DNA of 64,000 bases from Streptomyces sp. NRRL WC-3626 (lineage in GTDB: Bacteria; Actinomycetota; Actinomycetes; Streptomycetales; Streptomycetaceae), in NCBI RefSeq assembly GCF_000718785.1, contig NZ_JOCA01000020.1, positions 1 through 64,000 of the forward strand. The letters are read 5' to 3'. Position numbers and translations under genes: made by a program. The notes under the pieces were generated by a model, which saw only the letters and a program-made list of their open reading frames with translations, was not told the DNA's origin and did not search any database. This document shows, in pieces, positions 50,029 to 50,826 of the stretch (position 1 is the stretch's first letter; each line of letters begins with the position of its first letter).

Positions 50029-50076
50029 TGTCAACCGCAGGTTGACAGTGGTGGGGTGTCAACTTACGGTTGACAC
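50029..50076 (+). promoter_or_regulatory. Leaderless promoter covered by two palindromic operators
   Basis: TTGACA (50042-50047) and TACGGT (50065-50070) are 17 bases apart, and the ATG begins seven bases after the -10. Palindrome 1, TGTCAACC-N3-GGTTGACA (50029-50047), ends with the -35. Palindrome 2, GTGTCAAC-N5-GTTGACAC (50056-50076), spans the -10 and stops at the start codon. All four half-sites contain TGTCAAC. Autorepression by the downstream HTH protein is the simplest reading. Confidence 0.75.
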
Positions 50077-50826
50077 ATGACGAAGGACCCCGCCATCAAG
50101 TCATCCATCCGTCTCGACGACCTCATCGCGGCCATCAAGAAGGTCCACGAGGAGCCGCTCGCACAGCTCCAGGACGCGGTGCTCGCCGGTGAGCACCTCG
50201 GCGACGTGGCCGACCACCTGATCGGCCACTTCGTGGACCAGGCCCGCCGTTCGGGCGCCTCCTGGACCGACATCGGCCGGAGCATGGGCGTCACGCGCCA
50301 GGCGGCGCAGAAGCGCTTCGTACCGAAGGAGGGCAACGAGCTCGACCCGAGCCAGGGCTTCAACCGCTACACGCCCCGTGCCCGCAACGTGATCATGGCC
50401 GCGCACACCGAGGCCCAGACCGCGCACAACGCCGAGGGACTGCCCGAGCACCTGGTCCTCGGTCTGCTGGCCGAGCCGTGGGGCCTCGCGGTCAAGGCGA
50501 TCGACGAGCAGGGCGTCACCGTGCGGGCGGTCGCCGAGGCCGCCCGCGCGGCGCTCCCGCCGGCCGTCGAGGACGCCCCGGAGCTGGTGCCGTACGGCCC
50601 GGCGGCCAAGAAGGTCCTCGAGCTCACCTTCCGCGAGGCCCTGCGCCTCGGCCACAACTACATCGGCACCGAGCACATCCTGCTCGCCCTGCTCGAGCAC
50701 GAGAACGGCGAGGGCCTCCTCAGCGGTCTCGGCGTCACCAAGCCCGCCACCGAGCGGTACGTCGCCGACATGCTGGCGCAGTACGTCGAGACCGAAACGG
50801 CCGACGAGACCGGCCGGGAAGACTGA
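50077..50826 (+). CDS. HTH regulator fused to ClpC-type N-domains
   Basis: This 249-residue protein joins a helix-turn-helix (ARRSGASWTDIGRSMGVTRQAAQKRF, about residues 57-82) to two Clp_N repeats. The first is YTPRARNVIMAAHTEAQTAH with EHLVLGLL; the second is YGPAAKKVLELTFREALRLGHNYIGTEHILLALL. The second is nearly identical to residues 80-112 of ClpC in this window. There is no ATPase domain. It may sense ClpC substrates or adaptors or compete for them, and so link proteolysis to transcription. ATG at 50077 is leaderless with a near-consensus promoter. The next gene, for a DNA polymerase, starts 39 bases downstream. Confidence 0.85.
   Translation: MTKDPAIKSSIRLDDLIAAIKKVHEEPLAQLQDAVLAGEHLGDVADHLIGHFVDQARRSGASWTDIGRSMGVTRQAAQKRFVPKEGNELDPSQGFNRYTPRARNVIMAAHTEAQTAHNAEGLPEHLVLGLLAEPWGLAVKAIDEQGVTVRAVAEAARAALPPAVEDAPELVPYGPAAKKVLELTFREALRLGHNYIGTEHILLALLEHENGEGLLSGLGVTKPATERYVADMLAQYVETETADETGRED

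What the first reader, a model, noticed from the sequence alone, without database searches (positions are those of the whole stretch)
50029..50826. HTH-ClpN fusion regulator with a self-contained leaderless autoregulatory promoter
The gene at 50077 encodes a helix-turn-helix joined to two ClpC-type N-domains without any ATPase. Its second repeat is nearly identical to ClpC residues 80-112. Its promoter has TTGACA-N17-TACGGT ending seven bases before the ATG, and two palindromes with TGTCAAC half-sites lie on the -35 and the -10. This suggests a repressor that reads ClpC adaptors, substrates or damaged proteins (for example arginine-phosphorylated proteins, which bind ClpC N-domains in Bacillus) and switches its own transcription accordingly. 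It may also affect the divergent DUF2786 gene and the DNA polymerase gene 39 bases downstream.
Basis: partly seen in the sequence, partly recalled or inferred. Interest (0 to 1): 0.82.

Follow-up and report, generated by a model that had tools for sequence, protein, structure and literature searches.

The report
ClpC2-type repressor controlling its own promoter
This Streptomyces gene encodes a known kind of self-repressing sensor made from the docking domain of the ClpC protease; comparing many relatives suggests which part reads the DNA and reveals sister systems, one built on the docking domain of another protease, ClpX.

Summary
Gene 50077-50826 encodes a helix-turn-helix (HTH) joined to one two-repeat Clp_N domain without ATPase. 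Two perfect TGTCAAC-N5-GTTGACA palindromes, 28 bp apart, carry the -35 and -10 and leave one base before the ATG. They are the only perfect sites in the 7.9-Mb genome.

The kind is already known: this is the Streptomyces form of mycobacterial ClpC2. Taylor et al. 2023 showed autorepression on the same tandem leaderless operator, relief by cyclomarin, and a drug-sponge role. Phosphoarginine sensing is untested; the neighbouring genes are not conserved partners.

New here: paired operators lie before all 143 distinct fused genes examined. HTH relatives with other partners carry similar operators: DUF3887 fusions, a ClpX zinc-finger fusion, and short HTH genes followed by a stand-alone Clp_N gene (one in this genome). 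Helix residues 76 and 79 covary with half-site bases 5 and 6, and the operator persists where the Clp_N arginines proposed as DNA contacts are lost. This points to the HTH as the specific DNA reader; the solved N-terminal structure stops at residue 72, before that helix. Kinship limits the statistics.

The parts
50029..50047 (.). Operator O1, perfect palindrome TGTCAAC-N5-GTTGACA; its right arm is the -35
   Evidence: paired sites in 143 of 143 distinct fused genes
50042..50047 (+). -35 TTGACA inside O1
   Evidence: in relatives whose helix goes with GTCAG, this arm is GTCAA in 12 of 25 genes against 4 of 75 other arms, as expected if it must also be a -35
50057..50075 (.). Operator O2, perfect palindrome, 28 bp after O1, one base before the ATG
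50065..50070 (+). -10 TACGGT inside O2; start of transcription predicted at or next to the ATG (leaderless)
   Evidence: consensus of 64 upstreams has cTA.ggTTGaC here
50077..50826 (+). HTH-Clp_N autorepressor, 249 aa (ClpC2 type, no ATPase)
50104..50325 (+). N-terminal dimerisation/HTH domain, residues 10-83
   Evidence: (8ada, 4.7e-27 over 10-72)
50293..50319 (+). Recognition helix region, residues 73-81 TRQAAQKRF; proposed specificity residues A76 and K79
   Evidence: AF2 helix 74-81; covariation; absent from the solved N-terminal fragment, residues 4-72
50359..50775 (+). Clp_N domain, residues 95-233; pocket residues F95, Y173, E182 (with Q93 just before); R186/R190 = Mtb R185/R189

Best explanation
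The gene is the Streptomyces form of ClpC2. A dimer binds O1 and O2 through its N-terminal HTH and blocks its own leaderless promoter, whose -35 lies in O1 and -10 in O2. The Clp_N half copies the substrate/adaptor/antibiotic docking domain of ClpC. When it is occupied (by a ClpC-targeting cyclic peptide, or by excess ClpC clients or unfolded protein) the dimer lets go of the DNA, and the large amount of protein then made soaks up the ligand and shields ClpC. Shown here: gene, operators, uniqueness in the genome, conservation, covariation of helix and operator. Taken from the mycobacterial homologue: autorepression, ligand release, sponge. Inferred: that the HTH gives the specificity, and the natural ligand in Streptomyces.
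For: Closest solved relatives are ClpC2 proteins over both halves (9p2p 1.1e-67, 8b9o 2.1e-40, 8ad9 1.3e-38, 8ada 4.7e-27). Taylor et al. describe CGTCAAC-n5-GTTGACG one to two nt before the ORF, repeated upstream, over -35 and -10, leaderless, with autorepression and relief by cyclomarin A. Here the same layout is found in 143 of 143 distinct fused genes, spacing 28 or 29 bp, and perfect only here in the genome; none of 2244 control frames away from an HTH gene shows such a pair. HTH as reader: residue 79 x base 6 (MI 1.00, p 2e-4) and residue 76 x base 5 (MI 0.98, p 1e-4) are the strongest of 24 residue-base pairs over 19 helix types; HTH relatives without an attached Clp_N carry the same kind of paired operator; the Mtb R185/R189 equivalents are both Arg in only 40 of 65 orthologues that all keep two sites.
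Against: No experiment on this protein. Taylor et al. found weaker DNA binding by the C-terminal R185A/R189A double mutant, and 2.0-fold higher expression with the M. smegmatis equivalent, so Clp_N may contribute. In Mtb, ilamycin and an ecumicin analogue bind ClpC2 without inducing it (passages), so binding is not always enough. Permutation p-values ignore kinship: on a tree of the adjacent Clp_N genes residue 76 changes 3 times and base 5 four times, giving 1 (supported branches) to 3 independent pairs, too few for significance. Weaker links also reach small p (78 x 5: 0.004; 79 x 5: 0.007; 78 x 6: 0.013; 74 x 6: 0.02), as expected if residues are inherited together. AF2 models are only moderately confident (mean pLDDT 64-65), and Foldseek found no significant match for the HTH part.
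Confidence: 0.85

Rival explanations
1. DNA is read mainly by the Clp_N (C-terminal) domain through the helix carrying R186/R190, with the N-terminal domain serving only for dimerisation, as proposed for Mtb ClpC2.
For: R185A/R189A weakens binding, and the M. smegmatis equivalent raises expression 2.0-fold (Taylor et al.).
Against: R190 is Asp in 13 of 14 clade-B orthologues and Lys, His, Met or Leu in 11 of the other 51, yet two sites stay in all 65; R57A in the N-terminal domain raises expression more, 4.6-fold (R57 is reported as a dimer contact, so this does not separate the two views); operators accompany the HTH when Clp_N is absent (DUF3887, ClpX zinc finger) or on a separate protein; helix residues covary with bases.
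Confidence: 0.08
2. The Clp_N half senses arginine-phosphorylated or otherwise damaged proteins rather than secondary metabolites.
For: The second-repeat Glu (E199) is invariant in 65 of 65, and E124, opposite a first-repeat Glu of ClpC in the alignment, is Glu in 50 of 65; that these positions are the B. subtilis phosphoarginine sites is recalled. Taylor et al. have a section headed induction under heat stress (heading only seen).
Against: No arginine kinase (PF00217) was found in this genome, but the search rang in no control genome, so it is uninformative.
Confidence: 0.2
3. It is a regulator of its neighbours (divergent DUF2786 gene, downstream DNA polymerase) rather than mainly of itself.
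For: The O1 edge lies 38 bp from the DUF2786 start and the polymerase gene follows 39 bp downstream.
Against: Within the fetched flanks the neighbours occur beside 14 (DUF2786) and 15 (polymerase) of the 16 closest loci and beside none of 49 other orthologues, all of which keep the operators.
Confidence: 0.1

Closest known systems
Mycobacterial ClpC2 (Rv2667), Taylor et al. 2023, PMC10030653 (abstract, two sections and passages seen)
   Same: N-terminal domain + Clp_N without ATPase; tandem GTCAAC-n5-GTTGAC operators over -35 and -10, 1-2 nt before the start; leaderless; pocket residues Q94, F96, E181 kept (Q93, F95, E182)
   Different: F172 is Tyr (Y173); from Streptomyces; ligand untested; the data here favour the HTH, not the C-terminal arginines, as specific reader
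RelI antitoxin and its DUF3887/DUF2812 fusions (PMC13284704, passages seen)
   Same: Homologous HTH (9sdc matches residues 35-84, E 4.1e-4); the paper notes the likeness to ClpC2 and the DUF3887 fusions
   Different: RelI neutralises a toxin; its authors report no inverted repeats upstream of relSI, whereas the HTH-DUF3887 genes here do have paired operators
'ClpC2' of the Streptomyces literature (PMC9765437, passages seen)
   Same: Shares the name; a Clp protein
   Different: A Clp ATPase that works with ClpP1P2; another protein under the same name
ClpC ATPase N-domain (own copy in the window, 3694-4203 minus)
   Same: 42% identical over 153 residues
   Different: Here without AAA+ modules, with an HTH

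Membership tests
ClpC2 autorepressor (Rv2667 type) | N-terminal domain homologous to Rv2667 1-72 plus Clp_N, no ATPase | tested here: met
   8ada 4.7e-27 over residues 10-72; 8ad9 1.3e-38 over 93-238; ORF ends at 249 aa
ClpC2 autorepressor (Rv2667 type) | Two pseudopalindromes GTCAAC-n5-GTTGAC over -35/-10, 1-2 nt before the ORF | tested here: met
   the leaderless start itself is a prediction
ClpC2 autorepressor (Rv2667 type) | Cyclomarin-contact residues Q94, F96, F172, E181 | tested here: met
   three of four identical (Q93, F95, E182), F172 is Tyr173, by the alignment; across 65 orthologues Q93 and E182 vary, F95 is kept in 64
ClpC2 autorepressor (Rv2667 type) | Binds its operator, represses itself, releases on ligand, sponges ligand | not testable with these tools
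   needs protein and a strain
ClpC2 autorepressor (Rv2667 type) | C-terminal arginines R185/R189 as DNA contacts | tested here: inconclusive
   present here (R186, R190) but both Arg in only 40 of 65 orthologues that keep two sites
Streptomyces ClpC2 (Clp ATPase) | AAA+ modules | tested here: not met
   no AAA family in Pfam at E<=1
RelI antitoxin | Gene next to a RelS/BrnT-like toxin | tested here: not met
   neighbours are a DUF2786/DUF7168 gene and an NF011538 DNA polymerase gene

The most novel reading that the evidence does not exclude
Actinobacteria use one HTH module, whose specificity is set largely by two helix residues (76: A reads base A, S/T reads G at half-site base 5; 79: K/R reads C, E reads G, A reads T at base 6), to turn docking domains of Clp unfoldases into self-switching sensors and decoys: fused ClpC-N (ClpC2), a two-gene HTH + ClpC-N operon, and a ClpX zinc-finger-HTH protein that would guard ClpX as ClpC2 guards ClpC. 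Each sits under a promoter region marked by paired operators.
Probability: 0.5. Interest if true: 0.78.

Novelty: new member of a known kind. Interest (0 to 1): 0.55.

Why it matters
ClpC is a target of antibiotics made by actinomycetes, and ClpC2 is a described protein that both senses and soaks up such a drug. Finding the same switch across Streptomyces and its relatives, a two-gene form in the same genome, and a ClpX-docking version in other genomes suggests a general way in which these bacteria watch their proteases. The helix-operator rule makes this testable with two point changes.

Tried and rejected
Regulon beyond itself: no other site with 0-1 mismatch of the N5 operator in the genome; of the N4 form the two sites before the split HTH gene are perfect and three more have one mismatch (reversed control: 2 in all). 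The four 2-mismatch N5 sites were only roughly placed against reading frames and not pursued.

Neighbourhood as functional unit: rejected. Phosphoarginine kinase: uninformative. Fold class of the HTH: no significant Foldseek match. RelI-type antitoxin: rejected by context. Rule exceptions kept in view: Q79 goes with C, T or G; L120 (QAAQQR) has GTCAAG sites 356-384 nt upstream of its open frame; the TKQAVHRR family (L004, L115, L121, L123, L128) has a single site with a GTCAAG arm. Of the S/T76 loci, L145, L316, L319, L321, L323, L325 and L332 gave no strict pair, nor did L327 and L330; the looser reading recovers GTCAGT-type arms in L316, L319, L321 and L332.

Control for paired palindromes: 26 of 2270 other frames were flagged, 41 for any two alike palindromes; all 26 lie within 450 nt of an HTH gene, i.e. 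they can share its operators, so none of the remaining 2244 is flagged.

Rows dropped or added: one search scanned 295 loci; 185 unique rows kept, 93 without a strict pair, 6 without a parsable helix, 11 repeats. One search dropped one row whose helix read TKQAARSA and added L124 by hand. The 143 distinct fused genes are 65 (window included; L084 and L087, ClpC ATPases, and L088, a broken gene, left out) plus 80 less 2 shared; the 80 are the best of 573 confirmed relatives, so close ones. In one search my residue numbers for the Clp_N sites were off by one; one search replaces them. The 70 split loci are the 30 best plus 40 that I chose from the list, not all matches. The start of L065 was misassigned, but two sites are present.

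Full report
What is there. The window is from a Streptomyces: the nearest protein listed is 96% identical, from Streptomyces sp. KM77-8. Gene 50077-50826 encodes 249 aa: an N-terminal region of five predicted helices whose last two (63-70, 74-81) form the helix-turn-helix (the HTH part alone, gives the same last two), then one Clp_N domain of two repeats. The perfect operator occurs twice in 7.9 Mb, both times here.

What it is. Sequence search of solved structures gives ClpC2 proteins for both halves. Taylor et al. 2023 (PMC10030653: abstract, sections 7 and 11 and passages seen) showed for mycobacteria that ClpC2 represses itself on CGTCAAC-n5-GTTGACG sites 1-2 nt before a start that they infer to be leaderless, that cyclomarin A releases it, and that it then acts as a sponge. 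The finding is therefore a new member of a known kind. Note that 'ClpC2' in the Streptomyces literature is a Clp ATPase (PMC9765437, passages). A 2026 study (PMC12913811, passages) reports that ilamycin and an ecumicin analogue bind Mtb ClpC2 but do not induce it.

Conservation. Among 150 genomes of the family I count, from the best match per genome, about 122 with more than the ClpC ATPase itself; one further genome (G001) has a member by HMM. All have two sites with at most 2 mismatches, 28 or 29 bp apart (65 set: 44 and 21; named set: 72 and 8), and in the named set one base (73) or two (7) lie between the second site and the start. A second clade (33-38% identical, L070-L083, and L116) has mostly CGTCAAY-type sites at the same places. 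DUF2786 and polymerase neighbours are confined to the closest relatives.

Which half reads DNA. Taylor et al. assigned DNA binding to Clp_N through R185/R189, from weaker binding of the double mutant; their N-terminal crystal structure covers residues 4-72, and 8ADA numbering runs with the window protein (10-72 to 10-72), so helix 74-81 was not in it. Four lines here point to the HTH. (1) In 65 orthologues G71, V72, Q75, A76 and R80 are invariant, whereas the two Clp_N arginines are both present in 40; Asp replaces the second in 13 of 14 clade-B proteins. (2) HTH relatives fused to DUF3887 (one tested: PF13026, E 6.6e-10), found in 14 of 150 genomes (15 genes and a fragment), carry GT(A/C)AAG-type palindromes at -48 and -20, the ClpC2 positions; a 6-of-7 test on each site finds both in 6 of 15 genes, one in 7, none in 2, while by eye arms of this type can be read at both places in all 15. 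(3) Short HTH genes have the same pairs near -47 and -19 (two or more palindromes in 62 of 70), and in 67 of 70 a Clp_N frame follows (the domain begins within 31 nt of the HTH stop in 59, the rest being frames that open within 400 nt); Pfam finds Clp_N in 10 of 10 tested. One such pair lies in this genome: HTH at G000:C9:2841-3047 minus, Clp_N next to it, two perfect N4 operators at C9:3051-3093. Matches to this short HTH were found in 127 of 150 genomes, some of them weak. (4) Across 19 helix types the strongest residue-base links of 24 tested are 79 with base 6 and 76 with base 5: A76 goes with A in 11 of 11 types, S/T76 with G in 8 of 8; K/R79 with C in 9 of 9, E79 with G in 4 of 4, A79 with T in 1 of 1, Q79 mixed in 5. 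At arm level: A76 471 A and 9 T; S/T76 71 G and 4 A. The -35 arm was left out of this count, because it must also read TTGAC: there S/T76 genes show A in 12 of 25.

Against this: the p-values ignore kinship. A tree of the neighbouring Clp_N genes (66 split loci) gives only 3 changes of residue 76 and 4 of base 5, with 1 to 3 independent pairs; the one on supported branches goes the expected way in nearly all of 200 random pairings, but so few pairs cannot reach significance. The other origins of S/T76 (ClpX-zinc-finger fusion, L124) were not put on one tree. The C-terminal double mutant of Taylor et al. remains to be explained; a non-specific contribution of Clp_N is possible.

ClpX version. 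Thirteen of 150 genomes, not this one, hold a protein of about 125 residues with a ClpX C4 zinc finger (one tested: PF06689, E 1.4e-19) followed by this HTH. All 13 keep the four cysteines (sequences), and 12 of 13 show two listed TGTCAGG-type palindromes before the gene, 27-28 bp apart in six and 31-40 bp in six; in the thirteenth (L146) only one is listed, what looks like the other lying at the edge of the printed stretch. With the starts chosen there the genes begin about 15-29 nt after the second site, so they are not leaderless in the same way. I found no paper on this protein or on the HTH/Clp_N gene pair in searches (listings only). ClpC3 of M. smegmatis is mentioned in reviews (passages) and may be related to the split form; the primary paper was not seen.

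Mechanism. Likely steps: a dimer on O1 and O2 (homologue shown, here inferred) blocks RNA polymerase from a promoter whose two boxes lie inside the sites (sequence shown); ligand at the Clp_N pocket (F95, Y173, E182; by alignment) releases the DNA (homologue shown); the product accumulates and competes with ClpC for the ligand (homologue shown). How pocket occupancy reaches an HTH in the other domain is open; in the two-gene form it would have to pass between proteins. The natural ligand in Streptomyces is unknown: ClpC-targeting peptides or excess ClpC clients are the main candidates.

Verdict. Observation confirmed; interpretation partly supported and largely anticipated for mycobacteria; the added value is the helix-operator rule, the proposed relocation of DNA reading, and the wider set of Clp-docking-domain regulators.

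Noticed in passing
G000:C9:2278-3093 (L129): Second, two-gene form in the same genome: 69-aa HTH and an adjacent 187-aa Clp_N protein under GTCAAC-N4-GTTGAC pairs.
   Followed up: yes
L137-L149: ClpX zinc finger fused to the same HTH, with paired TGTCAGG-type palindromes upstream; 13 of 150 family genomes.
   Followed up: partly
L115, L121, L123, L128 (and L004 in this genome), upstream of the MADH... gene: A conserved HTH protein of about 160-180 aa with one GGTCAAG...TTGACC-type site roughly 75-105 nt before the start; different layout.
   Followed up: no
L125-L127, L131: A related HTH (RQAAERRY) family with GTCATC/GTCGTC palindromes upstream; its helix did not fit the motif used.
   Followed up: no
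L088 (G074): Fused gene apparently broken: found as two overlapping matches; operators intact.
   Followed up: no
window 3694-4203 minus: The N-domain of a full ClpC-type ATPase gene (open frame 870 aa) lies 46 kb away in the same window.
   Followed up: no
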